From IMG/VR virus record IMGVR_UViG_3300042691_030245, positions 1 to 52,269 of that record: a stretch of DNA of 52,269 bases; one strand, written 5' to 3'. The stretch is from a virus. The notes under the pieces are model-generated. The model was not told where the DNA came from. It saw nothing but the letters and a program-made list of their open reading frames with translations, and made no database searches. Position numbers and translations under genes: made by a program. Shown here in pieces: positions 14,827-39,664 of this stretch (within the stretch, counting starts at the first letter, position 1; each line of letters starts with the position of its first letter).

Positions 14827-14832
14827 ATAAAA

Positions 14833-24166: not shown

Positions 24167-24169
24167 AAC

Positions 24170-24208
24170 AAATGGGTCGCTTAAGATATCCATTTAGATC
24201 TCCTTTTT
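24170..24208 (+). terminator. Weak terminator candidate at the end of the virion block
   Basis: AAATGG (24170-24175) can pair with CCATTT (24190-24195), and a five-T run ends at 24208. The stem is short and AT-rich with a 14-base loop, so termination would be partial at best. Its position between the virion block and a strong promoter makes it worth noting. Confidence 0.3.
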
Positions 24209-24218
24209 AAAATAATAT

Positions 24219-24247
24219 TTGACACGATAATAATTATATAATAATAT
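24219..24247 (+). promoter_or_regulatory. Consensus sigma70 promoter for the glycan module
   Basis: A perfect TTGACA (24219-24224) is followed by exactly 17 bases and TAATAT (24242-24247). The expected start point, about 7 bases further, falls at 24253-24256, almost exactly on the GTG at 24256 that opens the first gene. It is the best promoter sequence seen in the rightward half and separates the glycan module from the virion block. Confidence 0.8.
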
Positions 24248-24255
24248 CCCAATTT

Positions 24256-25902
24256 GTGGATATAAATACCCCATATAGCCATCTCGCAATATTATCTTTC
24301 GTTTACATCATAGCATGGTCGTATATTCTCACCCTCAAAGAATTCCTGATAGATGACGATTTCGGAATCAAGCCCTTCTCCGACCGCTTCGTACAGCATA
24401 AAGACCCACAAGGTAACATAGTTAAAGAAGAACTGGTTGACTGGTACGAGCATGATGACAACGGAAAAAAGACGATCTTTAAGAATAACCAGTTTAACCC
24501 TCTTATTGGTATGCCAGGAGCTGTTATTCGTTGGCTCCGCATTCTTTGGGGTAGGAAATGGGCGGTTTTAGGCAAGAACTCAAAAGGTCATGAAGTCTAC
24601 GGTTATGTCCAAAGCGTCACAAAACACCACCTTTTATCTTTCTTAATCCATTACGCCAATATCATCTTGGCTTATACATTCTTAAGCAAAATCTTGGGAG
24701 AAGAACTGGCTTTCTACTCTGCGCTTCTATTTTCAGTTCACCCAATTACCTGCATGTCTGTCGCCTGGATTTCTGGAATTGGCTACCTTACATCTCTCTT
24801 ATTTGCCCTTATCTCTTTCAATCTTCCGAGCGTTTTAAACGGTTCCCCGCTAGTCTATTCCACTTTATTAGCCACCTATCTTTCTTGCGCTGGGTTACTT
24901 GCTGGTTTCGCAAACTGGCTAATTTTACTCTTAATCGGACATAAAGAGTCTGCTTTATCAGCCTTTTTAGTTGCCTTTTTCATGATGGCAACTTTTGGGC
25001 GTAGTACGGTGGATTACAGGAAAAAACAGTTTTCTGACCAAAACATGGGTAAATCGACCACGTTTAACTGGCGCAAGCCGATTGTTATTGTAAAGACCAT
25101 GTATTACTACTTCGCTATGCTGTTGTTTCCAAAGAGACTAGGATTATTCCATAAATGGGGTTATCACTACGATGAGAAAGTGGAGCGCATTGATTTCATG
25201 TTCTTTAAGGGAATTTTTGTTTTATCAGCCCTGTTTTACGCAATTTACGCAGGGCCATTTGCCGTGAAGTTCGGGGCAATATGGCTTATAGCATATCTGC
25301 TATTATTCAGCAATGTTATCACGGCACAACAGTTCGTAGTTGACCGATACGCTTTCATTTCAAGCCTTGGCTTTTGTATTATCACAGCTTATTATCTTTC
25401 TCCTTACCCAGCCCTGTTTTGGTCTTTATGCGGTATTTATATCATGCGGATTTGGTGCCATCTTCCAACATTTAACGACCAAATCTCTTTCTATGAATCA
25501 AATGTGAGGAACTTCCCAGACTCAGAAGTAGCTTATGGCAATCTTGGGGTTGTCTATTCTCAGAACGGAAAGCCTGGCACCTCAGCCGATCTTTGGCAAA
25601 AAGCGCTTTCTATAAATGAGTTTTATGATGTTCCATCTTATAATCTATTTTCTCTTTATAGGCAGAATGGGCTATTAAATGAGGCAAGAGGAATGTTGGT
25701 TAGGTGCCTCAACGCCAAAACCGTCCACTTCAAGGAAAGATGGGAATCTGAGCTTAAAGAGCTTGATAAGCACATTGAGATAAAGAAGAAAGTGGATGAT
25801 TTGAATCGGCAGTTGAATGACGCTATTAGGGACGGAAAGATAGACTTGGTTGCTCCGCTAAGAGAAGAACTCATCAGGATAACAAACCCACCAAAACCAT
25901 GA
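24256..25902 (+). CDS. TMTC-like GT-C membrane glycosyltransferase with TPR tail
   Basis: 548 residues. Residues about 10-410 are polytopic membrane. The first outer loop has an acidic LIDDDF motif (32-36) and a later segment SVHPITCMSVAWISG (160-174), the hallmark of TMTC/PMT-type enzymes that use polyprenyl-phosphate sugars. TPR repeats follow (about 425-500, AYGNLGVVYSQNGK) and a charged coiled-coil end. The GTG start is the only usable one in frame that keeps the first membrane helix, and it has no ribosome-binding site, suggesting a leaderless message. It probably transfers a sugar to a surface glycan or protein outside the cytoplasm. Confidence 0.75.
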   Translation: MDINTPYSHLAILSFVYIIAWSYILTLKEFLIDDDFGIKPFSDRFVQHKDPQGNIVKEELVDWYEHDDNGKKTIFKNNQFNPLIGMPGAVIRWLRILWGRKWAVLGKNSKGHEVYGYVQSVTKHHLLSFLIHYANIILAYTFLSKILGEELAFYSALLFSVHPITCMSVAWISGIGYLTSLLFALISFNLPSVLNGSPLVYSTLLATYLSCAGLLAGFANWLILLLIGHKESALSAFLVAFFMMATFGRSTVDYRKKQFSDQNMGKSTTFNWRKPIVIVKTMYYYFAMLLFPKRLGLFHKWGYHYDEKVERIDFMFFKGIFVLSALFYAIYAGPFAVKFGAIWLIAYLLLFSNVITAQQFVVDRYAFISSLGFCIITAYYLSPYPALFWSLCGIYIMRIWCHLPTFNDQISFYESNVRNFPDSEVAYGNLGVVYSQNGKPGTSADLWQKALSINEFYDVPSYNLFSLYRQNGLLNEARGMLVRCLNAKTVHFKERWESELKELDKHIEIKKKVDDLNRQLNDAIRDGKIDLVAPLREELIRITNPPKP

Positions 25903-26801
25903 GCGAAGAGATAATCTTCAGTTGTGTGATTCCAGCTTCCGCCAAGGATGCCGAGTCTCAGAATTTAAAGGATCTTATTGCCTCGATTAAAGCCCAAGAC
26001 TTTCCTCAAGACCAAATTGAGATTTTAGTAATTACCGATGGTGATTCGGAATCAGCCAAGGGGATTGGAATCAAACGAGCAAAGGGTGAGATCTGTGCCA
26101 TGTTTTGTGCGGATAATGAGATTACAGAAAGTGATCTATTTGAATGGGTTCAAAATTGGTTTTCAGTTCACCCAGAAGCTTCTGGGATGTTTCCAATGCA
26201 TTATGCGTATTTAAAGAAAGACAATTCTTTAAATAGATATTTTTCTCTTATCGGAGGAAACGATCCTGTCTGTTATTACCTTGGAAAAAATGATAGAAAA
26301 CCATGGGCTGACTCTTTAATAAAAAAGTCTAATTACCAACCAAGCTACGGGTGTAACGGATTTTTCTATAAATCTAAAGATATAAAATCAACTAATCTTG
26401 ATAATTATTATCCTATGGACAATGCCCAAGAAGTTCCTGGCGTTATTTACTCATTCACATCTAGCGGGATATGGCATAAGACATCCGACAACCTAATAAC
26501 CTTCTTAAAAAAGAGGTATAAATATGCAAGAAGTCTCTATTGTGATCGATGGGATAGAAGATGGCGAATCATTGATACGAAGGAGGATCGTATTAACCTC
26601 GGAATATTTATCGGATGTACAATCCTCACAATTCCAACATTACTCATTTCTGCCAGAGGTTTTAGCAAAGTGCGTGATCCAGCTTGGTTTTGGCATCCCA
26701 TTGTCTGTTGGGGATTCCTCATCACCTACACCATCTTAGCCCTTAGGAACCTACTCAAATATGGCCGATTCTTTCAATGCCCCCAACCGTCAGTATCATA
26801 A
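25899..26801 (+). CDS. GT2 family glycosyltransferase with C-terminal membrane helices
   Basis: 300 residues: a GT-A nucleotide-sugar fold (FSCVIPASAKDAES start, VITDGDSES), then two membrane helices (about 240-285). The usual DXD metal site appears as ADN (71-73), so catalysis may be altered. The start overlaps the previous stop by 4 bases (ATGA), indicating coupling. Likely adds or attaches a sugar at the inner face of the membrane. Confidence 0.75.
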   Translation: MSEEIIFSCVIPASAKDAESQNLKDLIASIKAQDFPQDQIEILVITDGDSESAKGIGIKRAKGEICAMFCADNEITESDLFEWVQNWFSVHPEASGMFPMHYAYLKKDNSLNRYFSLIGGNDPVCYYLGKNDRKPWADSLIKKSNYQPSYGCNGFFYKSKDIKSTNLDNYYPMDNAQEVPGVIYSFTSSGIWHKTSDNLITFLKKRYKYARSLYCDRWDRRWRIIDTKEDRINLGIFIGCTILTIPTLLISARGFSKVRDPAWFWHPIVCWGFLITYTILALRNLLKYGRFFQCPQPSVS

Positions 26802-27571
26802 TTCCAACTCTAGGAAGAGGAGACTCTTTAAGAGATTGCTTAGAATCCTTATGGTCTCAAACATATCAAGACTTCGAGATCATAAAAGTAACCGAGGAGG
26901 GCGAGCTTGCTAGACTCAGGAATGAAGGCGCAAAAAGAGCCAGAGGACGTTATCTTGTGTTCATTGATGACGACGTTGTCTGCTCCCCTGGATGGCTTTC
27001 CAGAATCGTTCGAATATTTGAAGAGCGACCCGATTGTGCAGGAGTGTCGGGTCCTGCTGTTATCACTGGACAATTTAGACGCAACAGGGACATTTTCTCT
27101 TTCAAGTTCTTCAAGTTCTTATACGATTTCTGGTTTTGTGGAAGGAAATACCGTTTGCCTGGACATATTACAGAAAGCGGGGCATGGACAACGGGTGCGT
27201 GTGATGAGTCCTGCGATTACGAAGGGGAAGTGGAGTTTTTGGAGGCTTGTAATTCCGCTTATCGGGCTGATATATTTCATCGTGTTGGCGGTTTTGATGA
27301 AAGTTTTCGGGGAGTAGGAGATTGGAGTGAGCCAGATTTGGCATTTAGGATTAGGGAAATTGGTTACAAGCTGTGGTTTTCAAGAGATGCCAGGTTGGAG
27401 CACAGACCAAGTAAATCAGGCGCATTTAAGAAGCGACTCAGTGACTCTCGGAACAGGCTGGCGAACTATGAGCTCTTCGCTAAAAGATGGGTTAAACCAC
27501 ATTGGAAGCATGAACTGTATAAGAAATTCTTGAGAACTTATTACAAAATAAAGGAATTTTATGCCTCTTAG
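26777..27571 (+). CDS. GT2 family glycosyltransferase (rhamnosyltransferase-like)
   Basis: 264 residues. VSIIIPTLGRGDSL start, intact DDD metal site (64-66, FIDDDVV), acceptor region ACNSAYRADIFHRVGGFDE (about 156-174) and acid DWSEPDLAFR, all typical of GT2 enzymes acting on lipid-linked glycans. Overlaps its predecessor by 25 bases. Donor sugar cannot be read from sequence. Confidence 0.85.
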   Translation: MPPTVSIIIPTLGRGDSLRDCLESLWSQTYQDFEIIKVTEEGELARLRNEGAKRARGRYLVFIDDDVVCSPGWLSRIVRIFEERPDCAGVSGPAVITGQFRRNRDIFSFKFFKFLYDFWFCGRKYRLPGHITESGAWTTGACDESCDYEGEVEFLEACNSAYRADIFHRVGGFDESFRGVGDWSEPDLAFRIREIGYKLWFSRDARLEHRPSKSGAFKKRLSDSRNRLANYELFAKRWVKPHWKHELYKKFLRTYYKIKEFYAS

Positions 27572-27872
27572 ACCGCTTAACGACTCGATTATCTTAGAAC
27601 CAGAACCAGAAGAATTTGTGGATGTGTCTCCTGAGGTTGAGAAAGCTATTAGGGAAGGAAAGATTCTTTTACCCGAGAAATACGAGTCTTTTTTCAAGAA
27701 GGTGGCTATGAGAGGCACGGTTATATCATGCGGTGACAAGTGCCGTTACAACTGGAAACATGGGGATAAGGTTATTTATGGAAGATTCTGCGGAGCTCCG
27801 CTTCCCATAAAAGATAAGAAATATCGAGTTATTAGAGAGTATGAAGCCCTGGCAAAGGAAGAAAATGCTTGA
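27561..27872 (+). CDS. groES: GroES-like co-chaperonin
   Basis: 103 residues, a full-length Cpn10 fold: N-terminal LRPLNDSIILEPEPEE, a mobile-loop-like segment (about 20-37) and the dome strands with AMRGTVISCGD (about 49-59) and HGDKVIYGRFCG (about 67-78). Co-chaperonins cap the GroEL chamber; phage versions such as T4 gp31 retarget host GroEL to large virion proteins. It overlaps the preceding glycosyltransferase by 11 bases and lies inside the glycan module, away from capsid genes. Confidence 0.85.
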   Translation: MPLRPLNDSIILEPEPEEFVDVSPEVEKAIREGKILLPEKYESFFKKVAMRGTVISCGDKCRYNWKHGDKVIYGRFCGAPLPIKDKKYRVIREYEALAKEENA

Positions 27873-28107
27873 TTACATGAAGCCAGTTGGTGCATTTTTG
27901 GAACATACTATCCGCCCTCTCATAGCTGAATCAAAATGGTTTTTAGATGAACTTGAGAAGAAAGGAATTAAGGTTAATGAGACGAACATTAAACACAGTC
28001 TTGATTATCTTTCTAGCTGTTATATACGCTATGCTGTCATACAACTTGTTCAAAACATAATCATTGCGGGGATTGTATGCCTGACAATTTATCACATCTT
28101 AGTATAG
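27865..28107 (+). CDS. Small tail-anchored membrane protein, 80 aa
   Basis: ATG at 27865 overlaps the groES stop and has an AAGGAAG site upstream; an ATG at 27841 is the alternative. Soluble helical front (about 1-50), one C-terminal membrane segment (about 58-78). Not recognised. Could be a partner or membrane anchor for neighbouring glycosyltransferases. Confidence 0.6.
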   Translation: MLDYMKPVGAFLEHTIRPLIAESKWFLDELEKKGIKVNETNIKHSLDYLSSCYIRYAVIQLVQNIIIAGIVCLTIYHILV

Positions 28108-28796
28108 TAATTCCTTGCTTTAATGAATCGCATGAAGTCTTAGATAAATTATCTAATGAATTAAGACTTCTTGGAGCCGAAGTCATAATAGTTGATGATG
28201 GGTCGCATAAACCATATCCAAACTCCATTAAGCATGGTGTTAATTTTGGATATGGATCTGCCCTAATGACTGGGATTAAGAATTCAACCAATCAAGTTAT
28301 AATGACAGTAGATGGGGATGGGGAGCATAAGTTAGATGATATTATAAGAATGTATGATGTTTGGAAGTTAATGGAAAAAGTAGATATGTTAATAGGTGTT
28401 AGAAGAATTAAAAAGGAAAGTTTAATTAGATTTTTGGGAAGAAAAGTTCTTAACTCTATAGCATCTATTCTTTGTCTTTATTGGTTAAGTGATCTGAATA
28501 GCGGAATGAGGATCTTTAAGAAGGATGTTGTTTCTGGATACTTTCCGATTCTATGCAAAACATTCAGCTTTACCACAAGCCTAACTCTAAGTATGTTAAT
28601 TGACGGGTATCAGATAGAATGGTTTCCAATTAGAAATCTTCCAAGAACTTATGGAAAAAGCAAAGTCAAGGTAATTAGAGATGGATTTGTTACACTTTAT
28701 TATATTTTATGGATTGGTCTAGGATTAAGATCTAGGAAATTTCGAGGTTTTTTAAGGTCTTTAATTTTTTGGCGAAAGGATGTCGCTTCTCAATGA
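28077..28796 (+). CDS. Polyprenyl-phosphate sugar synthase, DPM1/GtrB-like GT2
   Basis: 239 residues. SIVIPCFNES, VDDGS (39-43), catalytic DGDGEH (79-84), and the DPM1-type C-terminal motifs (NSGMRIFKKDV and RTYGKSKVK). These enzymes load a sugar from a nucleotide donor onto polyprenyl phosphate, the donor for membrane GT-C enzymes such as the TMTC-like protein upstream. It lacks the two C-terminal helices of GtrB. The last 65 bases overlap an oppositely oriented HNH gene. Confidence 0.85.
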   Translation: MPDNLSHLSIVIPCFNESHEVLDKLSNELRLLGAEVIIVDDGSHKPYPNSIKHGVNFGYGSALMTGIKNSTNQVIMTVDGDGEHKLDDIIRMYDVWKLMEKVDMLIGVRRIKKESLIRFLGRKVLNSIASILCLYWLSDLNSGMRIFKKDVVSGYFPILCKTFSFTTSLTLSMLIDGYQIEWFPIRNLPRTYGKSKVKVIRDGFVTLYYILWIGLGLRSRKFRGFLRSLIFWRKDVASQ

Positions 28797-29196
28797 TTGA
28801 TTGTTTTATATGCATCTTAGCATGGTATCCTCTATGAATAATTTCAAGATTACTAAGTCTATTATCGGATTTATTATGATTTTTGTGATGAACTATTTCG
28901 TTATAGTCGAGCTTTCTTCCAAGATGTTTTTCCATGACGTATCTATGCTCTCTCATAGATTCTTTTCTTCCTCTTCTTTCGCTTGGTGGAACCCAGATAT
29001 TGACATAACCACCAGTTCTATCTTTTGCTTTAGATATATGCCTTCCACCTCTCCAATTTCCATTATAATGACCATAGGAACCGCAAACGTATGAACAAAA
29101 TCTTACCCTATTTCCATTACTTTTCATTACTGGTTTCACTGGTTTTTTACACACTGGACACTGGACTAAATCTAGTTTTTTACTCATGAATAACAC
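28732..29196 (-). CDS. Free-standing HNH homing endonuclease with zinc finger
   Basis: 154 residues on the opposite strand to the surrounding operon. An N-terminal four-Cys knuckle (C13, C16, C34, C38), then an HNH core: EHRYVMEKHLG (83-93), IVHHKNHNKSDNR (101-113) and LSNLEIIHRGYH (114-125). Its 3' end overlaps the DPM1-like gene by 65 bases. Mobile gene that has entered between two glycan genes without breaking either. Start could also be at 29187. Confidence 0.85.
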   Translation of the reverse strand: MLFMSKKLDLVQCPVCKKPVKPVMKSNGNRVRFCSYVCGSYGHYNGNWRGGRHISKAKDRTGGYVNIWVPPSERRGRKESMREHRYVMEKHLGRKLDYNEIVHHKNHNKSDNRLSNLEIIHRGYHAKMHIKQSIIEKRHPFAKKLKTLKNLEIS

Positions 29197-29200
29197 TATA

Positions 29201-29216
29201 GACGGAGATCACCGTC
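29201..29216. promoter_or_regulatory. Short palindrome between HNH gene and deacetylase
   Basis: GACGGAGATCACCGTC is an inverted repeat with one mismatched pair. It lies in the 20-base gap between the HNH start and the deacetylase start. It contains part of the deacetylase ribosome-binding region (GGAG). It may be an operator of the HNH gene, the endonuclease target scar, or a small translational hairpin. Confidence 0.35.
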
Positions 29217-29726
29217 TTGTCAAATAAGAAAAAAGTAAAGTTTACTGTCGATTGGGAAGTATTCAATTCCTACGACCATCACTCAAAATGGTCTCCTGAC
29301 ATTTGTATTGATGAGCCGACTCATTACCTTCTTGATCTTCTAAGACGGCATAATATTAAGGCAATCTTCTACTGCGTTGGGTGGCTGAAAGATAACAGAT
29401 CTGACCTGTATAAGGCAATTCAAGCTGATGAGCACATTTTGGGAGATCACACCTATTTCCATAGAGGAGAACCAACTTTTAAGCCTTCTAGGGCTCCTCG
29501 CTGGAAAGGCGAGAAACGCCTTTTTAGCGGTGGTTTCTGGTTCCGTCTTATGCCTTATTGGTGGATTAAGAGAGAAGTGGAAAAGGAGGGTATTTTCTTT
29601 ATTCATCCGCATGATGTGTTGCTTGAGCACCCGAAATGTGGGCTTCGCACATTTGACCGCAATATCGGACTTAAAACTTCGAGAGATAAACTAGAACGGC
29701 TTGTTAGGGAGCTTGACTGGGAATGA
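29217..29726 (+). CDS. NodB-type polysaccharide deacetylase
   Basis: 169 residues. Conserved motifs FTVDWE (9-14, catalytic Asp12), GDHTYFH (76-82, metal His78 and His82 in HTxxH spacing) and FFIHPHD (127-133, catalytic His). Shorter than most NodB enzymes (about 200), with the C-terminal strand region reduced. TTG start after the palindrome. Likely removes acetyl groups from an amino sugar in the glycan under construction; related enzymes include PIG-L-unrelated carbohydrate esterase family 4. Confidence 0.82.
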   Translation: MSNKKKVKFTVDWEVFNSYDHHSKWSPDICIDEPTHYLLDLLRRHNIKAIFYCVGWLKDNRSDLYKAIQADEHILGDHTYFHRGEPTFKPSRAPRWKGEKRLFSGGFWFRLMPYWWIKREVEKEGIFFIHPHDVLLEHPKCGLRTFDRNIGLKTSRDKLERLVRELDWE

Positions 29727-29727
29727 G

Positions 29728-30150: not shown

Positions 30151-30194
30151 GCTAGTAATTATATTGTGGAAACGGTTTAAAGTAAAGGATTTTT

Positions 30195-30920
30195 ATGTCT
30201 AGGGGTGAGCCGAAATCAGAGAAGTTAATTCAGGATTATGTTAGCACTTTATATCCTAAAAGATATAGCGGATGTGGTTTTTTGTATCACAGTAAAATTG
30301 TAACAGAAATGCTAAAAGATGTTAAATTTAGAGATGGTAGATATAGTGATAAAATTTTAGATGTTGGATGCGGTCAGGGACTTGTTTCTCAACTCTACCC
30401 TAACTTTGACATTACAGGAATCGATATAAGCGATGGAATGCTTGAAAAGAATCCTTATAAATGGACGAAAGCTCCTGCTGAAGCTATCCCTTTTCCTGAT
30501 AATCATTTTGACTTTGTCGTTTGCCGCAGTCTTCTTCATCATCTTGATGATCCTAGATTGGGTCTTAGAGAAATGTTCAGAGTCCTGAAACCAGGCGGTC
30601 GGTTTGCTTGTTGGGACCCGAATCACAATGCTTTATATGAGCTTGTTAGGCATATATTTCAGCGCACAGACAGATTCAGTCATTTACACAAATCTTTTAC
30701 AGATACCGAGCTATTCGAGATGTTGGAAGAAGTTGGATTTAAGATAACGGAAAAGAAATATATCGGGTATCTCGCTTATCCTTTAACGGCTTTTCCAGAC
30801 ATCATTAAATTCCCCATATCTATCGGGATTGGGCGTAAATTAATCAGATTGGATGATTTTATAGCCAAAACTCCATTAAAGAAATTATCTTGGAGTTTGA
30901 TGGCGAAGGCGGTGAAATAA
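30195..30920 (+). CDS. Class I SAM-dependent methyltransferase
   Basis: 241 residues. SAM motif ILDVGCGQG (54-62), acidic strand ITGIDIS, and post-motif PFPDNHFDFVVCRSLLHHL, characteristic of the Methyltransf_11 fold. C-terminal helical hydrophobic part (about 190-225) may touch membrane or lipid substrate. Overlaps the radical SAM gene by one base. Probably methylates a sugar or lipid intermediate of the module. Confidence 0.85.
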   Translation: MSRGEPKSEKLIQDYVSTLYPKRYSGCGFLYHSKIVTEMLKDVKFRDGRYSDKILDVGCGQGLVSQLYPNFDITGIDISDGMLEKNPYKWTKAPAEAIPFPDNHFDFVVCRSLLHHLDDPRLGLREMFRVLKPGGRFACWDPNHNALYELVRHIFQRTDRFSHLHKSFTDTELFEMLEEVGFKITEKKYIGYLAYPLTAFPDIIKFPISIGIGRKLIRLDDFIAKTPLKKLSWSLMAKAVK

Positions 30921-32518
30921 TGTCTAGTTTATACGGTGATCGTGAAATAAAAAGGTCTGGTAGCGGGGTTCTGACTATTGGAAAAGAGATTGGTTATGAC
31001 CTTTCCCATGTTGATGATTATGGGTTCGAATATGGACCGAAAGATATACGGGTAATGCTCTTTAATCCGCCAGTTTCTTTTGATGTGTTTTATGGGGAAT
31101 GGGACATGTCGGATGTTAAAAGCTCCTCTCCCCCGCTTGGAATCCTAGCCCTAGCTAGCATGATTAAACGATACGGCTACAACGTAAAAGTTGTGGATGC
31201 TCATGCCGATTCTTTAGATATCGAGGCTATTAAACAGCAGATTATTGATTTTCAGCCCGATGTGGTAGGTGTTACTGCCATGACGGTCATGATCTCGGCA
31301 AGTGCGGAGATTGCTAAAGCTGTAAAAGAGATCAATAAGGACATTGTCACTATTTTAGGAGGTGTTCATGTTACGGCAGAACCTATCGAAACGCTTAGGC
31401 GTTATCCTCAGTTCGATTATGCAGTTATCGGCGAGGGAGAAGTGGTGTTTACTGAGTTCCTGGAAAAACTACGAAAAGATGGAAAACCCCAAGCTGTTAA
31501 AAGTCTTGTTTGGAAAGCAGGAGAGGAGATCATAGTCAATGAGCGCAGAGCATTTTTTAAGGGACTGGATGAGTTCCCGCCTCCTGCATTTGATCTTGTC
31601 CCTAATTTGTTTAATCATTATAGGCTTTCAGTATTTGGAACAAAAAAGTTCAAGTCGGTCGGACTTGTCACCTCAAGAGGCTGTACTGGCAAATGCACAT
31701 TCTGTGACCTCGGAGTCGTTGGACGAGGTTATAGAGCTAACTCTGCTGAGTATCTCATCTCTTTAATGAAAGACCTATACCATAACTATGGGGTATCTGA
31801 CTTCCTTTTTTATGATGATCTTTTTGTTGGAAGCCGTCCTCGGTTGCAGGAGATTTGCGAGATTATCATAAGGGAAAAGCTCCCTTTCACATGGTCATGT
31901 TGTGCTCGTGTTGATTTCATCCATGTCGATATGCTGAAACTCATGAAGGATGCTGGGTGTTGGATGATTGAGTACGGCATTGAAAGCGGGTGTCAGAGGA
32001 TCATAGATTCTATGCGGAAAAACATCACGAAGGAGAAAATCGTTGAAACCATTAATGCCACCTACGAAGCTGGTATTGTCACTAAAGGTAACTTTATATT
32101 CGGGAACCCAGGAGAAGATCACTGGTCTATCCTGGAATCGATTGATTTCGCATGCGGAGACCTCAAACTCAACTACGCACAACACACTTTCTTGCAACCT
32201 TTGCCAGGCAGTGAACTTTATGAAACGGCTGGTCGGTACGGAGAATTCGACCCATCCTGGGATCGATTCAATACATTCTCGATCAATTTTATTCCGAAAG
32301 GGTTCACTAGGGATAACCTCGTCATGTACTCAAAATATTTCTGGAACCGTTTCTACCTTCGACCCCACATTATCTGGCAAGAAATCACCAAAATTAAAAG
32401 TATACAAGACCTCCAAAGAGCGTGGCTTGCGATAAAAGGGTTTGTGAAAGCGACTCTTTATAAGCGAAAACTGCCTGATTTTGTGCTAAATCGCAAGGAA
32501 AGAATAGGGGTTCATTGA
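30920..32518 (+). CDS. B12-binding-domain radical SAM enzyme (532 aa)
   Basis: ATG at 30920 overlaps the methyltransferase stop (TAATG). Residues about 43-185 form a cobalamin-binding-type domain (VMLFNPP, VVGVTAMT, ILGGVHVT, YAVIGEGE) without a DXHXXG histidine, as in base-off class B radical SAM methylases. The radical SAM core starts with RGCTGKCTFCD (C255, C259, C262, the canonical CX3CX2C). Such enzymes methylate unreactive carbons or rearrange lipids. Substrate unknown; location suggests a glycan or lipid. Confidence 0.9.
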   Translation: MSSLYGDREIKRSGSGVLTIGKEIGYDLSHVDDYGFEYGPKDIRVMLFNPPVSFDVFYGEWDMSDVKSSSPPLGILALASMIKRYGYNVKVVDAHADSLDIEAIKQQIIDFQPDVVGVTAMTVMISASAEIAKAVKEINKDIVTILGGVHVTAEPIETLRRYPQFDYAVIGEGEVVFTEFLEKLRKDGKPQAVKSLVWKAGEEIIVNERRAFFKGLDEFPPPAFDLVPNLFNHYRLSVFGTKKFKSVGLVTSRGCTGKCTFCDLGVVGRGYRANSAEYLISLMKDLYHNYGVSDFLFYDDLFVGSRPRLQEICEIIIREKLPFTWSCCARVDFIHVDMLKLMKDAGCWMIEYGIESGCQRIIDSMRKNITKEKIVETINATYEAGIVTKGNFIFGNPGEDHWSILESIDFACGDLKLNYAQHTFLQPLPGSELYETAGRYGEFDPSWDRFNTFSINFIPKGFTRDNLVMYSKYFWNRFYLRPHIIWQEITKIKSIQDLQRAWLAIKGFVKATLYKRKLPDFVLNRKERIGVH

Positions 32519-32519
32519 G

Positions 32520-33854
32520 ATGAACATTATGTTCGTAAACCCGCCATCTCCTGATGGTTATAAATATTATCGGGACACAAATCGGAGCGGTCGGCGTTCT
32601 AAAGCTAACGAGATATGGCCACAGGCTGGACTCGCTCTATTCGCTGGTCTTTATGACGAGTCAGAGCATGATGTAAAGATAGTGGATTGTATTGCCGAGA
32701 ATATCTCATACTCTAAGCTATATGAGATTATGAAAGATTTCGCTCCTAATTGGGTAGTATTCAACCCAGTTTCTTGCACAATAACTTCCGATATGTATGT
32801 CGCTTATCTAGCCAAGTTAGTTGGGGCTAAGACGGTCGCTATCAGCCCTCATCTTAAAGCTCTGCCTGGCAGTAAAGAAAGGTTCCGCTACCTCGATCAC
32901 ACTGTTGAGAACGTGAAGTTTGGACCAGAGCCAGAGTATCAGCTTCGGGAGTTAATTACAGGAGAATCTTCTGAAGGAACTTCTTTTGAGAACCTTCCAC
33001 CAGCTAGACAGGATTTACTCCCTATTCATAAGTATTCCATGCCATTCATTGGATCTAATTACACGGCTATTTACGCCTCTAGAGGCTGTTCTTTTGGGTG
33101 TATTTATTGCCGTACAACTGTAGCAACAGAGAGAAAGGCGAGGTATAGAGATGTTGAATCGATTATTAGGGAAATCAAAAATAACAACCTCAGAAATGTT
33201 ATTTTTCACGCTGATACAACTACTCTTAACCATCGGTGGCTGTTATCTCTTTGCAAAGAACTCAAACGACTTCCCTTTCGTGTTCGTATTGTATCAAACT
33301 CTCGTGTGGATACTATTAATCCAGAAATTCTGAAAGAAATGAAAGAAGCGGGTTGGTGGATGATCGCTTTCGGCTGTGAATCTGGCGATAACAAGGTACT
33401 GGAAATGAACAAAAAGGAGGCAACAGTTGAGCAAGCGAGACAAGCCGTTAAATGGTGCAAAGAAGCGGGAATTAAAGTGTGGGGCTATTTTATGCTCGGA
33501 ATGTACGGAGATACTAGAGACAGCATGGAGAAAACTATCGAACTGTCTCTTATGGAACCATTCGATATTGTTAACTTCTCAGTTGCCAGCCCCTATCCTG
33601 GAACGGAATGGGGTCAAATTTCAAAGGACAAGGGATGGGTGGCTGATGACAGGTGGGAAGCATTTGATCAAAATTATTCAGCACAAGTGGAGCAACCCGA
33701 TTGCCCTAGAGACCTCGTCAAAAAGATGCAGAAAAAAGCCTATATCAAATGGTATTCATCTTACCGAGGATTGAAATTTTTCTTGAACGGATTTCGACCT
33801 CAGTATTTTGGTTATTTCTTTAGCACCATTAAAGAGTATGTTTTTAAGGGATGA
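32520..33854 (+). CDS. Radical SAM enzyme with B12-binding-like N-terminus (444 aa)
   Basis: Residues 1-145 resemble a B12-binding domain (MFVNPPSPDG, VVFNPVS, TVAISPHL). The 4Fe-4S motif is ASRGCSFGCIYC (C190, C194, C197), followed by the expected glycine-rich strand (IRIVSNSRVD) and FGCESGDNKV. Starts two bases after the previous stop and overlaps the next gene by 4 bases. Not the same subfamily as its neighbour (pairwise identity low by eye). Confidence 0.88.
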   Translation: MNIMFVNPPSPDGYKYYRDTNRSGRRSKANEIWPQAGLALFAGLYDESEHDVKIVDCIAENISYSKLYEIMKDFAPNWVVFNPVSCTITSDMYVAYLAKLVGAKTVAISPHLKALPGSKERFRYLDHTVENVKFGPEPEYQLRELITGESSEGTSFENLPPARQDLLPIHKYSMPFIGSNYTAIYASRGCSFGCIYCRTTVATERKARYRDVESIIREIKNNNLRNVIFHADTTTLNHRWLLSLCKELKRLPFRVRIVSNSRVDTINPEILKEMKEAGWWMIAFGCESGDNKVLEMNKKEATVEQARQAVKWCKEAGIKVWGYFMLGMYGDTRDSMEKTIELSLMEPFDIVNFSVASPYPGTEWGQISKDKGWVADDRWEAFDQNYSAQVEQPDCPRDLVKKMQKKAYIKWYSSYRGLKFFLNGFRPQYFGYFFSTIKEYVFKG

Positions 33855-34708
33855 TTACAAAAAATGCGGAGCTTTTCAAAAAAGCCCCATCATGGATCTA
33901 TAAAATAGGAGCGCAAGCCTACATTGACAAACGATACCCCAGACATCTTTTTATCGAGACCACGGCGTCATGCAATCTCACGTGCGAGTACTGCCCAAGA
34001 GAGAAAATCAAGAACCACATGGACTTCGAGTTATTCAAGCGAATCATTGATGAAGCAAAGGCTTATGGACCTCGTTCATTCTCTCTCCATTTGTTCGGCG
34101 AACCTCTTCTCTACCCACGAATCTGGGACGCTATCAGATACATTAAAAGCGCAAATAAAAAGAACATTGTTTTACTTACGTCTAACGGAACTTTGTTCAA
34201 CCGATATATTGACGAAATCACAGAATCTAACGTGGACAAGCTCATTTGGAGCTGGAGACCAGAAGCGAAATTCACAGAAGAAACGAAAGAGAGGTTGAGG
34301 CAATGGGGACGAATGACCGTAAGAATGATCGACACTCAGATTCCAAAGGAAGAAGAGGAGTATTGGGGAAACTGGCCAAGCGTAGAGAAAAGAGAGCTCC
34401 ACAATTACGGGGGTCAAATAAATTTATCAAAGTTTGGTGTCCAGTCCATAAGTGGGGAAAGATATCCATGCTATCATTTGTGGCTTGCCCCAGCTGTGAG
34501 TTGGAACGGAAAGTTCCTGATGTGTTGCGCAGACAGCGGTCAAAAAGAGGTATTCGGGGACATAAACAAGGAAAGCGTAGCGGTAGCGTGGCAAAGACTG
34601 AACAACGTGAGAAAAGCTCATATGGAGGGGATTTTTCAGGGGATTTGTGAGAATTGTGATGTGTATAAAAATTATCCCGATCTTTTCTTTTCATGGCAGA
34701 AATCCTAG
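33851..34708 (+). CDS. Radical SAM enzyme with SPASM-like C-terminus
   Basis: 285 residues. CX3CX2C as CNLTCEYC (C41, C45, C48), GEPLLYP loop (about 82-88), and C-terminal cysteines YPCYHLW...LMCCADSG...GICENCD that could bind auxiliary iron-sulfur clusters as in SPASM/twitch proteins. No B12 domain. Third tandem radical SAM gene, so the three may act in sequence or on different parts of one molecule. Confidence 0.88.
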   Translation: MITKNAELFKKAPSWIYKIGAQAYIDKRYPRHLFIETTASCNLTCEYCPREKIKNHMDFELFKRIIDEAKAYGPRSFSLHLFGEPLLYPRIWDAIRYIKSANKKNIVLLTSNGTLFNRYIDEITESNVDKLIWSWRPEAKFTEETKERLRQWGRMTVRMIDTQIPKEEEEYWGNWPSVEKRELHNYGGQINLSKFGVQSISGERYPCYHLWLAPAVSWNGKFLMCCADSGQKEVFGDINKESVAVAWQRLNNVRKAHMEGIFQGICENCDVYKNYPDLFFSWQKS

Positions 34709-35877
34709 TTTTATATCATTTCCTGTTCTTTCGTAAGTTTTATAGAGATCCGTTTCTGAATTCTACTGGCGAGCTTTTGAGCACCCACTTTCCACACTGG
34801 ATTTGGATGGGTAGACAGATGAGAAAAAACAAACTGTGGTTTAAAGATGACATCTACTATTATGAGCCGATGAGTATACCGTTCCTTTCTAGCTTCTATC
34901 CTATCCATATTATTACTGCTTGGATTGGGGCAAAACTTTCGACGGATTCTTCTTTTAAGCTTTTACACTTCACGATTCTGGCTCATTATATTCTCAGCTC
35001 CTTTCTCTCTTATTTCATGATGTTACAGTGGTTTCCGCCGTTAATCAGCTTGTTCGGAGCTATGTCGATCTCTTATATGGGGGCTTCTCAGAGGGTGCAG
35101 AACCCATGTATCGCCTATACCATGGCTTGGATTCCAGGCTGTTTTATCGATGGATACATCGGGGCTTTCTCATTCGGCATGGCTCTATTAAGCGGGTATT
35201 ACCCAACCCTTGTTTACATGCTTCCTTTTATCACTTTATTTAATCCGTTCGCTCTGTTTGGTATTATTCTAGGATTACCGCAGGTCATACCGTTTCTATC
35301 TTACTGGCCTAAAAGCATAAGAAACGGCTTTAAAGTGGACAAGCGGTTTGGGGCAATGTCCATATTCCGAACTCTATTCCAGGATTGGCGTGGATATGAC
35401 AATGGGGTTTTGTTTTTCGAGACAGCGGTTGGCATGGGCCTCGCAACATTGCTGTGGGCACTCAACCCATTTAGCACCACCACCTTAATTGCCTGCTTTT
35501 GCTTTTTTTTGTCTTTTGGTTTTTTAAGGGTTCCTTTTAGAGTTCCAGCCCGCTTTCTTTATCCAGCCTGTTTTTTCTTTACCCTATCTTCTTGTCAGAC
35601 TCTTATGCGGTTCAGCGATACAACCAATCAGTTGTTAATATTAGTGCAAGGTTTTTTATTATTGAGTAACGCAAACCTTTATCCACTCTGGCCTTTTACG
35701 GAGTGGCAAAAGAGACCGTCAGATTGGTTTGATAAGGAGTCATATGATATTAAGAGCTTCCCCTACTTTACTGGATACTTTCACGGAATCAAAACAGGAG
35801 GTTATACGGGAGGTTTCTCGCTTAAATCCACCTGCGAAAGAAGGGGGGTCACTAACCCAAATGGGGAACGTGTCTAA
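34693..35877 (+). CDS. Polytopic GT-C-like (YfhO-type) membrane protein
   Basis: 394 residues with about 8-9 predicted membrane segments. The first loop (STGELLSTHFPHWIWMG) and the loop SSFYPIHIITAW resemble YfhO and related lipid-linked sugar transferases, which use an acidic residue in the first outer loop. Its C-terminal 50 residues share DNA with the following gene. Probably a second membrane glycosyltransferase or flippase-like partner. Confidence 0.65.
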   Translation: MAEILVLYHFLFFRKFYRDPFLNSTGELLSTHFPHWIWMGRQMRKNKLWFKDDIYYYEPMSIPFLSSFYPIHIITAWIGAKLSTDSSFKLLHFTILAHYILSSFLSYFMMLQWFPPLISLFGAMSISYMGASQRVQNPCIAYTMAWIPGCFIDGYIGAFSFGMALLSGYYPTLVYMLPFITLFNPFALFGIILGLPQVIPFLSYWPKSIRNGFKVDKRFGAMSIFRTLFQDWRGYDNGVLFFETAVGMGLATLLWALNPFSTTTLIACFCFFLSFGFLRVPFRVPARFLYPACFFFTLSSCQTLMRFSDTTNQLLILVQGFLLLSNANLYPLWPFTEWQKRPSDWFDKESYDIKSFPYFTGYFHGIKTGGYTGGFSLKSTCERRGVTNPNGERV

Positions 35878-36151
35878 TCCATTCCTTGCCCATATCATGC
35901 TGATAAATACTATCGGTCTCTCTATCGTTGTGGAGAGTTTCTCGGAGGCTTATTATTTTCTTTCCCATAACTCATCCACCACATCAAGCGTTAGAAGGAA
36001 AGCGGAAGAGTTTAGAGATTCTTTTATCTTCATTCAAGGAACTGGTCTTGAAAAGGTTATCCAAGAATATGGAATCGGCTATGACGCAGACGCATTAAGA
36101 CGCACATTCTTTACCTTAGCAGATAGAAAGGATCTTATCAATGACTTATAA
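35744..36151 (+). CDS. Hypothetical protein overlapping the GT-C gene, 135 aa
   Basis: ATG at 35744 has an AAGGAG site 5 bases upstream and is favoured over 35729. That gives a 134-base overlap with the membrane protein gene. A later ATG at 35861 would give only a 17-base overlap. The product has a hydrophobic stretch (about 48-62, LAHIMLINTIGLSIV) and an acidic helical tail. Not recognised; conserved placement between two glycan genes suggests it belongs to the pathway. Confidence 0.55.
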   Translation: MILRASPTLLDTFTESKQEVIREVSRLNPPAKEGGSLTQMGNVSNPFLAHIMLINTIGLSIVVESFSEAYYFLSHNSSTTSSVRRKAEEFRDSFIFIQGTGLEKVIQEYGIGYDADALRRTFFTLADRKDLINDL

Positions 36152-37136
36152 GGCTAGTGTTGTTCTGTGTCATCATACTGGAAACTTTGTTGATAGGGCG
36201 GTTGAGACCCTTCTTCAGAGTCGTAATGTTGAGTTGGAAATTATAGTGGTTACGTCAGAGGATGGAAGAGAATTTAAAAACACAAGAACTGTATATTTCA
36301 ATGGGGGAGCCAGTGAAAAACGCAATATTGGTTTTAAGTACTGCTCTAATAGTAATATTTGCTTCTTTGACGATGACGTCGAAGTCGACAGGGATTGCGT
36401 TTACGAACTTTGCAGGGCTATGGAACGAGAAGATGTCGGAATGGTCTATGGTAAGACTTACAATATGGAACGCCGTCAAAACTTCGATGGAGCTGGGAGT
36501 TTCCTAACCTCAACGGGTTTTTTGTGGGCGAGAGAAGAATCGGGCATTAAAGATGTTGGGCAGTACGATGTAGAAGAGCCTGTCTTTGCTGGAAAAGGGG
36601 CTTGTATGGCGATTAAGAGGAAGGTGTTCTCTTGGGTTGGTTATTTCGATCCCTACTATGGAATTTTAGCGGAAGAGACTGATATTTCATGGAAATGCTG
36701 GCTTGCTGGGTACAAGGTAATCTATGTTCCAAAAGCAATTCTCTACCATGCTTTTAATACAAGGTTCAAACCTTGGTCTTACTATTATACTCATAAACGT
36801 GTGTATTTCCACGGCTCCCGCAATTACCTCGTCATGCTCACCAAGTGCTTGGAACTAAAGAACGTCTTTATCATGGTCCCACAAACAATGCTCATGTGGT
36901 TCCTTGCTGGCCTTGGTATGTTCTTCGGAAAGAAATGGAAAGCTGGCTGGTTAATATGGTGCGGAATAGCGGCTTATTTCAAGGATATGCCAATAATTCT
37001 TAATAAGAGACGCAGAACCCAGAACTTGAGAGTCGTGTCAGATAAAGAACTCTTCAAGTCTATTATGAGAAACCCTGGACTAAAATATTTTCTAAGTCGT
37101 GTTGTTAATTACTGGAGGACTGGGATACATGGCTGA
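36141..37136 (+). CDS. GT2 glycosyltransferase with membrane C-terminus
   Basis: 331 residues. ASVVLCHHTGNFVDRA start, DDD metal site (77-79), GYFDPYYGILAEETDISWK acceptor/catalytic region and two hydrophobic stretches near 245-265. Overlaps both neighbours. Typical membrane-bound rhamnosyl- or similar transferase that extends a lipid-linked glycan. Confidence 0.85.
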   Translation: MTYKASVVLCHHTGNFVDRAVETLLQSRNVELEIIVVTSEDGREFKNTRTVYFNGGASEKRNIGFKYCSNSNICFFDDDVEVDRDCVYELCRAMEREDVGMVYGKTYNMERRQNFDGAGSFLTSTGFLWAREESGIKDVGQYDVEEPVFAGKGACMAIKRKVFSWVGYFDPYYGILAEETDISWKCWLAGYKVIYVPKAILYHAFNTRFKPWSYYYTHKRVYFHGSRNYLVMLTKCLELKNVFIMVPQTMLMWFLAGLGMFFGKKWKAGWLIWCGIAAYFKDMPIILNKRRRTQNLRVVSDKELFKSIMRNPGLKYFLSRVVNYWRTGIHG

Positions 37137-37800
37137 AGATTACTGGCCGTCTTTATATGAAGATGAATATGCCATTAAGAGGATAGAAAAGTCCCTGAAC
37201 ATGGCTGATTTAAAGCCTGGATTAACGGTATTGGATGTCGGATGCCATATGGGGGAGCTGGAAACCTATATGCCCATAGAAGTGATGTATAATGGAATTG
37301 ACCATTTAAACGGGCATGACATAGACGGAGGCTTTGAACTTGACACTAAGTTCGACAGAATCATCTGTCTGGAGACATTGGAACATTTGAAGTATCCCAA
37401 AAGAACGCTTCTCGCTATTAAAGATCATCTTGCTGATGATGGAATCGCTATTATTAGCCTACCAAACGAGTCAACCCTATTTCATAGATTAAGAAGTTTC
37501 TTCGGAACTCCTGACGCCGAATGTTTCTCTGAATGTGGTAAGCATTTACATCTTCCGAGTCTCGCTCAATCCCGTCAGTTCTTAAAAGATCTCTTCTTTA
37601 TAGAAGAAGAAAAATACTACATTAACACAAGCGCAAGATTTTGCAGACAGAAATGGATGGGCTTTATTCTTAAACTAATCCCAGATTTTATTTGGCAAGC
37701 AATGGCCAACACAGTTCCGTCTCTCTTTGCGAGAGGATGGATATTCAGGTGCAGAAAATATGCAACCCCCCAAACAAAACAAAAAGATCCTCCTTATTGA
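37129..37800 (+). CDS. Class I SAM methyltransferase
   Basis: 224 residues from ATG 37129, which has GGAGGAC 9 bases upstream (an in-frame ATG at 37099 lacks a site). SAM loop VLDVGCHMG (34-42) is close to consensus, followed by FDRIICLETLEHLKYP (about 76-91). C-terminal part carries amphipathic helices (about 180-205). Overlaps the next gene by 41 bases. Likely tailors a glycan or lipid. Confidence 0.8.
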   Translation: MAEDYWPSLYEDEYAIKRIEKSLNMADLKPGLTVLDVGCHMGELETYMPIEVMYNGIDHLNGHDIDGGFELDTKFDRIICLETLEHLKYPKRTLLAIKDHLADDGIAIISLPNESTLFHRLRSFFGTPDAECFSECGKHLHLPSLAQSRQFLKDLFFIEEEKYYINTSARFCRQKWMGFILKLIPDFIWQAMANTVPSLFARGWIFRCRKYATPQTKQKDPPY

Positions 37801-38470
37801 CATTGAAACGTCCCCGCTCGTGGCTTATACGTGGGGAATGTACGAACAGAATGTAATTAAGAAAATAAGGGCTTTTCAGATTCTTTCGGTTGCCTACCAA
37901 TGGCTAGGCGAAAAAACAAAAGTTATCGCCTGTGATACTCAGAGCGAAAAATCTCTCCTAAAAAAACTCCACGAATTACTCGATAAAGCCGAAATAGTTA
38001 TTGCCCATAATGGAGATTCCTTCGATATAAAGAAAATAAATACCAGATTTATCATTCATAAGTTCAGCCCAACAAGTCCCTATAAAACAATAGATACTAA
38101 GAAAGAAGCTAAAAAAATCGCTTGCTTTGATTCTAATAAACTCAATGAACTTGGGCTTGATATGGAAGAGGGAGAAAAGGTGAAACATCGTGGATTTGAT
38201 ATGTGGGTAGGATGTTTGGCTGGTAATAAGAAAGACTGGGCTGAAATGAAAAAATACAACAAAGCGGACGTTGATTTGCTGGCTAGAATTTATTTGCGTC
38301 TTCGTTCATGGATGAAAACGCATCCTAATATTAATCTTTATACAGAAAATATTGATCTTACTAATTGCAGGGCTTGCGGGTCTGAAAATACTAGGAGAAG
38401 CGGATTCTCTTATACTTCAAGAACAAAAAGACAGAGGTTTTTCTGTAATGATTGCAGACACTGGTTTTAA
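37760..38470 (+). CDS. RNase H-like 3'-5' exonuclease (YprB-type) with zinc ribbon
   Basis: ATG at 37760 chosen; product 236 residues. DEDD signature: LIDIETS (12-18, D14 and E16), HNGDSFD (83-89) and YNKADVDLL (166-174). A C-terminal four-Cys ribbon (CRACG...CNDC, about 203-232) may bind nucleic acid. It is the only nucleic-acid enzyme in the rightward glycan block, and overlaps the methyltransferase gene. Confidence 0.75.
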   Translation: MQPPKQNKKILLIDIETSPLVAYTWGMYEQNVIKKIRAFQILSVAYQWLGEKTKVIACDTQSEKSLLKKLHELLDKAEIVIAHNGDSFDIKKINTRFIIHKFSPTSPYKTIDTKKEAKKIACFDSNKLNELGLDMEEGEKVKHRGFDMWVGCLAGNKKDWAEMKKYNKADVDLLARIYLRLRSWMKTHPNINLYTENIDLTNCRACGSENTRRSGFSYTSRTKRQRFFCNDCRHWF

Positions 38471-38612
38471 GTGGTTAAAGAAGTCACTTGGTGAGCCTGA
38501 TACCGTCCCATCACAATGCTACCTTTGCGGAGCAATTTTGTCCAGAAAAGGTTGGATTAAGTGGGATAATATGGTTAATTGTTTGGATTGCGGGCATACA
38601 TTCGAAGTCTAG
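38448..38612 (+). CDS. Small zinc-ribbon protein, 54 aa
   Basis: ATG at 38448 with AGAGG upstream, overlapping the exonuclease gene by 23 bases. Two cysteine pairs (CYLCG and CLDCG) spaced as in zinc ribbons. Its stop overlaps the convergent radical SAM gene's stop by a few bases, so the two transcription units meet here with no spacer for a terminator. Confidence 0.65.
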   Translation: MIADTGFKWLKKSLGEPDTVPSQCYLCGAILSRKGWIKWDNMVNCLDCGHTFEV

Positions 38613-39664
38613 CGAAACGTCTTTCTAATCTTTTCTTCAAGAACAAGACGTGCGCCACGCATAAGATAAGTAACGTCCTCCCATTTTTTAATATCTTGAA
38701 TTTTTCTCATCCAAAATTCAGGCGATTTATATGCATCGAAATACTTAGGAATTCTTTTATGCCCAATAGAATTAGGATCTGGCTCAGTATGCGGAGGTGA
38801 ATAAATAGAAGCTTGTGCCGTCTTAATATAACCCTTCTTTAGAAGGTAATGACACAGATCAATAGTATTTTGTTCTTCTTCCTCAGTCTCCCATTCATAC
38901 GAACTCATAAAGGTTCCGTGGGGAGCAAGACCAGCATCAGACATTGATTTCATAATTGGAATAACATCTTCAGACCGTTGTCCTTTTTGGATAATGTCAA
39001 CTGTGCGCTGATTCGCAGACTCTATCCCGACAAGCATGAACTTAAACCCAGCATCTGCCATCATCTTATAGTTAAGCTTCACTGGCTTCATATTACAGCC
39101 AAGAAGAATCTTTTTATTACGTCCACTCTTAATCATAATATCGCAAAATTCTTCAAGCCATTTTCCAACTGGAAATGTTCCAGAATCGTCGAAGATCTCC
39201 TTGAATCCTAGAGATATGCAGTTATCTATCTCTTCAATGAATGAGGCTACGCTTCTGACTCCCCTTTTTTCTCCAGCTTGTAATCTCTCCGTATCTTGGC
39301 AAAACACACAACGGCCATACCAGCAAAGATTTGAAACCATAGAATGTGTCGCTGGGTGACGGCGATAATTTCCGTAGCGTTGCCATCTTTTTTCTTTAGC
39401 TTTTGTAAAAACTCTATCTGGATATGGGAGTGACGAAAAGTCGAACTCTTTTAATAGATAATCATTATCATATATCTTATCAAACTTGCCATCGTCTTTA
39501 CCATCCCAGACAACCTCGTGACCATCATTACGGAGTTTCGTTGCCACCATCGCAAGCTGGGCAGGAAAAACCCATGTCATTTTTTCTAACTGTCTTTGTT
39601 GCATGGCCTTATTAAGCGGAAACAGATACCTCATATCACTATCCCAGGCTTCTTTGCTTTGCAC
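38609..39664 (-). CDS. Radical SAM protein with atypical CX4CX2C cluster motif
   Basis: 351 residues on the minus strand, last gene of the leftward block. The cysteine motif is LCWYGRCVFC (C114, C119, C122), one residue longer in the first gap than canonical CX3CX2C. The surrounding core (FDDSGTFPVG, LVGIESANQRT, HGTFMSSYEWETEEEE) follows B12-type radical SAM enzymes, and residues about 20-100 resemble a shortened B12-binding domain. Possibly works with the three rightward radical SAM enzymes. Confidence 0.82.
   Translation of the reverse strand: MQSKEAWDSDMRYLFPLNKAMQQRQLEKMTWVFPAQLAMVATKLRNDGHEVVWDGKDDGKFDKIYDNDYLLKEFDFSSLPYPDRVFTKAKEKRWQRYGNYRRHPATHSMVSNLCWYGRCVFCQDTERLQAGEKRGVRSVASFIEEIDNCISLGFKEIFDDSGTFPVGKWLEEFCDIMIKSGRNKKILLGCNMKPVKLNYKMMADAGFKFMLVGIESANQRTVDIIQKGQRSEDVIPIMKSMSDAGLAPHGTFMSSYEWETEEEEQNTIDLCHYLLKKGYIKTAQASIYSPPHTEPDPNSIGHKRIPKYFDAYKSPEFWMRKIQDIKKWEDVTYLMRGARLVLEEKIRKTFR

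What the first reader, a model, noticed from the sequence alone, without database searches (positions are those of the whole stretch)
24167..39664. Large glycan/lipid-modification module with four radical SAM enzymes in a phage with no sign of lysogeny
Nearly 30 percent of the genome encodes a TMTC-like membrane glycosyltransferase, a second GT-C-like protein, four GT2 enzymes (one DPM1/GtrB-like), a NodB deacetylase, two methyltransferases and three tandem radical SAM enzymes, with a fourth radical SAM just across the convergent junction. Classic phage seroconversion cassettes hold three genes (flippase, GtrB, one specific transferase) and come from temperate phages. Here the set is large, includes B12-type radical SAM chemistry and no integrase or recognisable repressor is present. 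It may remodel host surface glycan to exclude other phages, alter a lipid, or decorate the virion.
Basis: partly seen in the sequence, partly recalled or inferred. Interest (0 to 1): 0.92.

Follow-up and report, generated by a model that had tools for sequence, protein, structure and literature searches.

The report
Conserved phage sugar-tailoring gene module
A family of uncultivated phages carries, as a fixed part of its small genome, a roughly 13-kilobase set of sugar-transfer, deacetylating, methylating and radical-chemistry enzymes that probably rebuilds the sugar coat of the infected bacterium, a job usually left to a few optional phage genes.

Summary
The window is a complete phage genome (69-nt direct terminal repeat) whose rightward late operon ends in a 24.2-38.5 kb block encoding two GT-C membrane glycosyltransferases, four GT2 enzymes, a NodB deacetylase, two methyltransferases and three tandem radical SAM proteins, with a fourth across the convergent junction. 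It is no chimera: all 12 long (34 kb or more) IMG/VR relatives with capsid protein at least 59% identical carry the module in nearly the same order. Its genes are as conserved as the virion genes, far more than the replication genes, and both trees share their main splits. More distant relatives lack it. Catalytic residues are conserved; radical SAM 4 has non-canonical cysteine spacing. Best reading: a core pathway that loads an amino sugar on polyprenyl phosphate, deacetylates it, tailors it by radical and methyl chemistry, and transfers it by GT-C enzymes to the host envelope, probably against re-adsorption. Acceptor, purpose and host (Auribacterota-like) are inferred. 'No sign of lysogeny' holds for the window, but two relatives encode a tyrosine recombinase. 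New variant of a known kind.

The parts
24256..25902 (+). TMTC-like GT-C membrane glycosyltransferase with C-terminal TPR
   Evidence: TPR; AF2 pLDDT 84, matches TPR proteins, ArnT and oligosaccharyltransferase; D33 D34 invariant in 12 phages
25899..26801 (+). GTa: GT2 glycosyltransferase with two C-terminal TM helices
   Evidence: Glycos_transf_2 E=0.0014; 34-65% identity in all 12 relatives; TM count
26777..27571 (+). GTb: soluble GT2 glycosyltransferase
   Evidence: Glycos_transf_2 E=3e-20; D64 D65 D66 invariant
27561..27872 (+). GroES-like co-chaperonin
   Evidence: Cpn10 E=3e-8; present at the same place in most relatives
27841..28107 (+). tm88: one-helix membrane protein, possible tether of GTc (inference)
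   Evidence: Overlaps the GTc gene; one TM helix in 10 of 10 homologues
28077..28796 (+). GTc: polyprenyl-phosphate sugar synthase-like GT2 (ArnC/Dpm1-like)
   Evidence: Glycos_transf_2 E=4e-15; nearest PDB ArnC and Dpm1; PpgS 2e-19, below cut-off
28732..29196 (-). HNH endonuclease, probable insertion, not part of the pathway
   Evidence: HNH_3 E=5e-10; not at this place in the other phages
29217..29726 (+). NodB-type polysaccharide deacetylase without signal peptide
   Evidence: Polysacc_deac_1 E=9e-9, DUF3473 E=2e-9; D12, H78xxxH82, R92, H130 invariant; no TM helix
29728..30150 (-). HNH endonuclease, probable insertion, not part of the pathway
   Evidence: HNH_3 E=4e-15; absent from relatives
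30195..30920 (+). MT1: class I SAM methyltransferase
   Evidence: Methyltransf_11 E=3e-24; 36.5% to a gene in the Ca. Euphemobacter cluster
30890..32518 (+). RS1: B12-binding radical SAM, HpnJ/BchE-like; true start probably 30920
   Evidence: B12-binding E=1e-26, Radical_SAM E=7e-20; HpnJ 174 bits vs cut-off 577.6; C265 C269 C272 invariant
32520..33854 (+). RS2: radical SAM with weak B12 domain, HpnJ-like
   Evidence: Radical_SAM E=3e-28; 40% to Ca. Euphemobacter; CX3CX2C invariant
33851..34708 (+). RS3: radical SAM/SPASM protein
   Evidence: Radical_SAM E=2e-10, SPASM E=6e-7; C41 C45 C48 and C-terminal Cys invariant
34693..35877 (+). YfhO/ArnT-like GT-C membrane glycosyltransferase
   Evidence: No Pfam hit; AF2 pLDDT 79; ArnT, ALG9 and oligosaccharyltransferase lead the fold matches
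36141..37136 (+). GTd: GT2 glycosyltransferase with one TM helix
   Evidence: Glyco_trans_2_3 E=1e-13; conserved D77 D78 D79 and E178 E179 xD181
37099..37800 (+). MT2: SAM methyltransferase
   Evidence: Methyltransf_23 E=8e-14; 40-60% in 8 of the 12 relatives
37727..38470 (+). 3'-5' exonuclease-like protein at the operon end, probably not part of the pathway
   Evidence: RNase_H_2 E=8e-9; only in two relatives
38609..39664 (-). RS4: radical SAM with non-canonical CX4CX2C (CX7CX2C in other members)
   Evidence: Radical_SAM 45.4 bits, cut-off 29.5; alignment of 10

Best explanation
The block is a glycan-tailoring pathway that is part of the core genome of a phage clade. Shown: the gene set, its conserved order, intact active sites and inheritance with the virion genes. 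Inferred from enzyme families: on the cytoplasmic face GTc, perhaps held at the membrane by tm88, loads an N-acyl amino sugar onto undecaprenyl phosphate; NodB deacylates it there (as ArnD does in the Arn pathway and HpnK in hopanoid synthesis); radical SAM enzymes and two methyltransferases then methylate, deoxygenate or rearrange the sugar; GTa, GTb and GTd extend host glycan; after flipping, the two GT-C enzymes (ArnT/YfhO-like and TMTC-like) transfer the tailored sugar to the host envelope glycan or a surface protein. No flippase, polymerase or initiating transferase was recognised, so it would modify host polymers rather than build its own. Likely purpose: late in infection or in a carrier state, change the receptor so that released progeny and competing phages do not adsorb.
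For: Module core present in 43/45 gene-genome pairs in each of two subtypes, with identities like those of the virion genes, against 8/40 and 7/40 for the replication side. Same order in relatives. Module and virion trees share the main splits. Catalytic residues invariant. GTc nearest to ArnC and Dpm1 structures. NodB without signal peptide or TM helix, usually next to GTc. Both GT-C models match ArnT. Members differ by swapped sugar genes: GDP-mannose dehydratase-like, epimerase, aminotransferase, nucleotidyltransferase (read from sequence). A bacterial cluster in Ca. Euphemobacter (Auribacterota) has the RS2-GTc-MT1 triad beside GT-C-like genes. Hopanoid HpnI-HpnK-HpnJ shows the order transfer, deacetylation, radical SAM (PMC12583986).
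Against: No experiment, host isolate or product structure. No flippase found. RS1 and RS2 fall far below the HpnJ cut-off, so their chemistry is open. Foldseek E-values for the GT-C models are weak (about 0.005-0.009). NodB was not recognised in G057 and G065. The late-operon position fits virion decoration as well as re-adsorption blocking.
Confidence: 0.55

Rival explanations
1. Virion glycosylation: the enzymes decorate the phage's own capsid or tail proteins, which would explain why the module sits behind the tail genes and is as conserved as they are.
For: Position directly after the tail genes and inheritance with virion genes; a GroES-like gene inside the block; some mycobacteriophages are thought to glycosylate their virions (e.g. 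PMC11256854, listed).
Against: Two GT-C membrane enzymes and a polyprenyl-phosphate sugar synthase point to the outer side of the membrane, whereas tailed phages assemble in the cytoplasm; soluble GT2 enzymes alone would do.
Confidence: 0.2
2. Membrane glycolipid remodelling in the manner of hopanoid cyclitol ethers: the acceptor is a lipid, and the aim is membrane stability or lysis timing rather than receptor change.
For: RS1, RS2 and RS4 are best matched by HpnJ; the set glycosyltransferase, deacetylase, radical SAM parallels HpnI-HpnK-HpnJ.
Against: HpnJ cut-off missed by a wide margin; two GT-C enzymes and several nucleotide-sugar genes in relatives point to a longer glycan.
Confidence: 0.15
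3. Assembly chimera or recent passive host cargo without function for the phage.
For: The first, more distant relatives lacked these genes.
Against: Same module in the same place in 12 other contigs from several metagenome samples, intact reading frames and trees that agree with virion genes.
Confidence: 0.02

Closest known systems
Phage gtrABC seroconversion cassettes
   Same: Polyprenyl-phosphate sugar synthase plus GT-C transferase acting on host surface glycan
   Different: No GtrA found; about 15 genes rather than 3; radical SAM, NodB and methyltransferases; core to a clade, mostly without integrase
Sugar gene sets of cyanophage P-SSM2 and pelagimyophages (PMC2984593, PMC7029224)
   Same: Many glycan genes, in pelagimyophages also radical SAM cassettes, in phages not described there as carrying them for lysogeny
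   Different: There unique to one genome or in a hypervariable region; here one nearly syntenic module shared by a whole clade
Arn pathway (ArnC-ArnD-ArnT)
   Same: ArnC-like synthase, NodB-type deacetylase and an ArnT-like GT-C
   Different: No ArnA, ArnB, ArnE or ArnF seen; radical SAM and methyltransferases added; far below the ArnC cut-off
Hopanoid HpnI-HpnK-HpnJ
   Same: Glycosyl transfer, deacetylation, then a B12-type radical SAM protein
   Different: RS1 and RS2 far below the HpnJ cut-off; no hopanoid genes seen in the window
Ca. Euphemobacter frigidus chromosomal cluster (L029/L055)
   Same: Homologues of RS2 (40%), GTc (34%), MT1 (36.5%), RS1 (31%) and GT-C-like genes within 12 kb
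   Different: Different order; no NodB, RS3 or RS4 homologue found there

Membership tests
gtrABC seroconversion cassette | GtrA small multi-helix flippase next to GtrB | tested here: not met
   No module protein scanned hits a GtrA family; tm88, which was not in the Pfam scans, has a single TM helix
gtrABC seroconversion cassette | GtrB-like polyprenyl-phosphate sugar synthase | tested here: inconclusive
   GTc is ArnC/Dpm1-like but lacks TM helices
gtrABC seroconversion cassette | Carried by temperate phages near the integrase | tested here: not met
   No tyrosine recombinase in the window; 2 of 11 relatives searched have one
Arn pathway | ArnC equivalog score | tested here: not met
   37 bits against a cut-off of 529
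Arn pathway | ArnT-like GT-C fold | tested here: met
   ArnT is the best GT-C match for both models, probability 1.00 but weak E-values
HpnJ | Score above the NCBIfam cut-off | tested here: not met
   174 and 163 bits against 577.6
TMTC-like proteins | GT-C domain with an acidic pair in the first loop plus C-terminal TPR | tested here: met
   D33 D34 invariant, TPR hits, model
TMTC-like proteins | O-mannosyltransferase activity | not testable with these tools
   Needs an enzyme assay
Canonical radical SAM (RS1, RS2, RS3) | CX3CX2C motif | tested here: met
   Invariant cysteines
Canonical radical SAM (RS4) | CX3CX2C motif | tested here: not met
   CX4CX2C here, CX7CX2C in others, although the Pfam cut-off is passed
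NodB/ArnD-type deacetylases | Catalytic Asp, HxxxH, Arg and C-terminal His | tested here: met
   Invariant in 7 homologues
Surface-glycan conversion by phage | Changed host envelope glycan or adsorption | not testable with these tools
   Needs expression and mass spectrometry

The most novel reading that the evidence does not exclude
A phage lineage has, as an essential part of its core genome, a dedicated lipid-linked amino-sugar pathway with radical SAM tailoring that makes a glycan unknown in bacteria and that every member needs to complete infection.
Probability: 0.25. Interest if true: 0.85.

Novelty: new variant of a known kind. Interest (0 to 1): 0.62.

Why it matters
Phage sugar genes are usually seen as optional cargo. 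Here roughly a quarter of a 50-kb genome is a conserved pathway that travels with the capsid genes while the replication genes turn over. It suggests that envelope glycan chemistry is basic to this infection strategy, offers a set of phage radical SAM sugar enzymes (one family with unusual cysteine spacing), and gives a lead to the phages of a little-known bacterial group.

Tried and rejected
Megablast of the block against 50,697 phage records gave nothing. Single-sequence viral scans with RS1 and the TMTC-like protein found nothing; the capsid route worked. The first relatives searched (lower capsid identity or short fragments) lacked radical SAM and GT2, which briefly suggested a recent acquisition until closer long contigs were found. 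Chimera rejected. HpnJ membership rejected by score. The 95-kb contig G066 was hoped to be a prophage with host flanks, but its first 44 kb look like a second phage. The library of viral protein structures gave no convincing full-length relative of the TMTC-like protein. Tblastn of RS4 and of the TMTC-like protein in known phages found nothing. A literature search for Auribacterota phages found no paper in the held library.
Full report
What is there. The window is one IMG/VR record with a 69-nt direct terminal repeat, so very probably a complete genome. Terminase, major capsid protein and a baseplate-wedge-like protein lie in the rightward half; RusA-like, Sak4-like, exonuclease and helicase genes in the leftward half. 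The rightward operon ends with the block 24256-38470, and RS4 (38609-39664) is the last sizeable gene of the opposing operon. The two membrane proteins without glycosyltransferase Pfam hits give AlphaFold models of mean pLDDT 84 and 79; ArnT is the first full-length match for one, behind TPR hits, and the top match for the other. The Foldseek E-values are weak, but GT-C structures recur in both lists.

It is conserved. A capsid-profile scan found 73 related contigs. Of 30 checked, the 12 long contigs with capsid identity of 59% or more all carry two to four radical SAM genes and several GT2 matches, while the long contigs at 56% or less carry no radical SAM. Some GT2 matches in G066 belong to its second-phage half. 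The one shorter close contig mapped in full, G075, ends before the module position. G058 and G066 appear to be the same phage, so about 11 are independent. Gene order is nearly constant: TMTC, GTa, GTb, GroES, tm88, GTc, NodB, B12-radical SAM genes, RS3, YfhO-like, GTd, MT2, then RS4, usually convergent; G065 is rearranged and G064 is cut off. Two subtypes exist: A, like the window, with MT1, RS1 and RS2; B with more distant B12-radical SAM genes and extra nucleotide-sugar genes such as a GDP-mannose dehydratase-like protein (read from sequence). Nine core module genes occur in 43 of 45 gene-genome pairs in each subtype with median identity 55% and 42%, against 50% and 47% for virion genes, while replication-side genes occur in 8 and 7 of 40. 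Virion and module trees share the splits between A, B and G058/G065; the RS4 tree differs, suggesting exchange of that gene. Codon usage of the module correlates with that of virion (0.86) and replication genes (0.84).

Active sites are intact. In 6-14 homologues per family the acidic motifs of the GT2 enzymes, D33 D34 of the TMTC-like protein, the NodB metal and catalytic residues and the radical SAM cysteines are invariant or nearly so. RS4 has CX4CX2C in the window and CX7CX2C in some members.

How it may work. GTc is closest to ArnC and Dpm1 among solved structures and has no predicted membrane helix in 9 of 10 homologues; tm88, whose gene overlaps it, has exactly one in 10 of 10. NodB has no signal peptide or helix, so it should act on the cytoplasmic face, as ArnD does (established knowledge). 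In hopanoid synthesis a glycosyltransferase, a deacetylase and the radical SAM protein HpnJ act in that order (PMC12583986); RS1 and RS2 are best matched by HpnJ but far below its cut-off. I infer loading, deacetylation, radical and methyl tailoring, flipping and GT-C transfer. The enzyme families are shown; the order of steps, substrates and acceptor are inference. No flippase, polymerase or initiating transferase was recognised, so host glycan is the likely acceptor.

Host. The one hit for RS2 in the species-genome scan is Ca. Euphemobacter frigidus (Auribacterota), where RS2, GTc and MT1 homologues are adjacent and GT-C-like genes and a further B12-radical SAM lie nearby. The pattern-based scan was narrow. 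Capsid relatives (34-35%) lie in three of 44 Auribacterota genomes, in two of them among bacterial genes. Matches to the TMTC-like profile occur in 42 of those 44 genomes, up to about 30 stretches each, some of which may rest on the TPR part alone. Capsid homologues at 30-36% also occur in phages of quite different hosts, so the host is only suggested.

Lysogeny. There is no tyrosine recombinase in the window; there is one each in G055 (complete, 127-nt repeat) and G059. Both are about 300 aa and could be integrases or Xer-like resolvases; this was not settled.

Known context. Large sugar gene sets in phages are known: P-SSM2 has 24 genes thought to be for LPS (PMC2984593), and pelagimyophages carry glycosyltransferases and radical SAM cassettes in a hypervariable region (PMC7029224). 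TMTC-like TPR proteins occur in prokaryotes (PMC7801869). What differs here is a fixed module inherited along with the virion genes.

Noticed in passing
L325, L322-L324 (G016:C14 62.4-80 kb); L319/L320 (G014:C5 10.5-21 kb); L326: Three Auribacterota genomes hold related capsid genes; in G016 a roughly 17-kb block with terminase, portal, GroES-like and capsid genes lies among housekeeping genes, possibly a domesticated prophage or gene-transfer-agent-like locus.
   Followed up: partly
L273-L277 (G066, 95 kb): Contig joins what look like two phages: 0-44 kb a different tailed phage with its own glycosyltransferases, 44-95 kb a member of this clade; chimera or tandem prophages.
   Followed up: partly
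L020 6831-8174: Relative with 54% capsid identity has a TMTC-like gene (31% to the window's) shortly after the capsid gene, next to an HNH gene.
   Followed up: partly
window 11694-13333: Seven imperfect 80-nt repeats, 60-70% alike, inside the 748-aa ORF 11559-13805.
   Followed up: no
G060 13272-15047 (L293): A 591-aa ORF that reads like a TonB-dependent outer-membrane receptor sits between the module and RS4 of this phage.
   Followed up: no
L061, L062 (G032:C97): Auribacterota contig where 40 kb hold about a dozen B12-radical SAM homologues.
   Followed up: no
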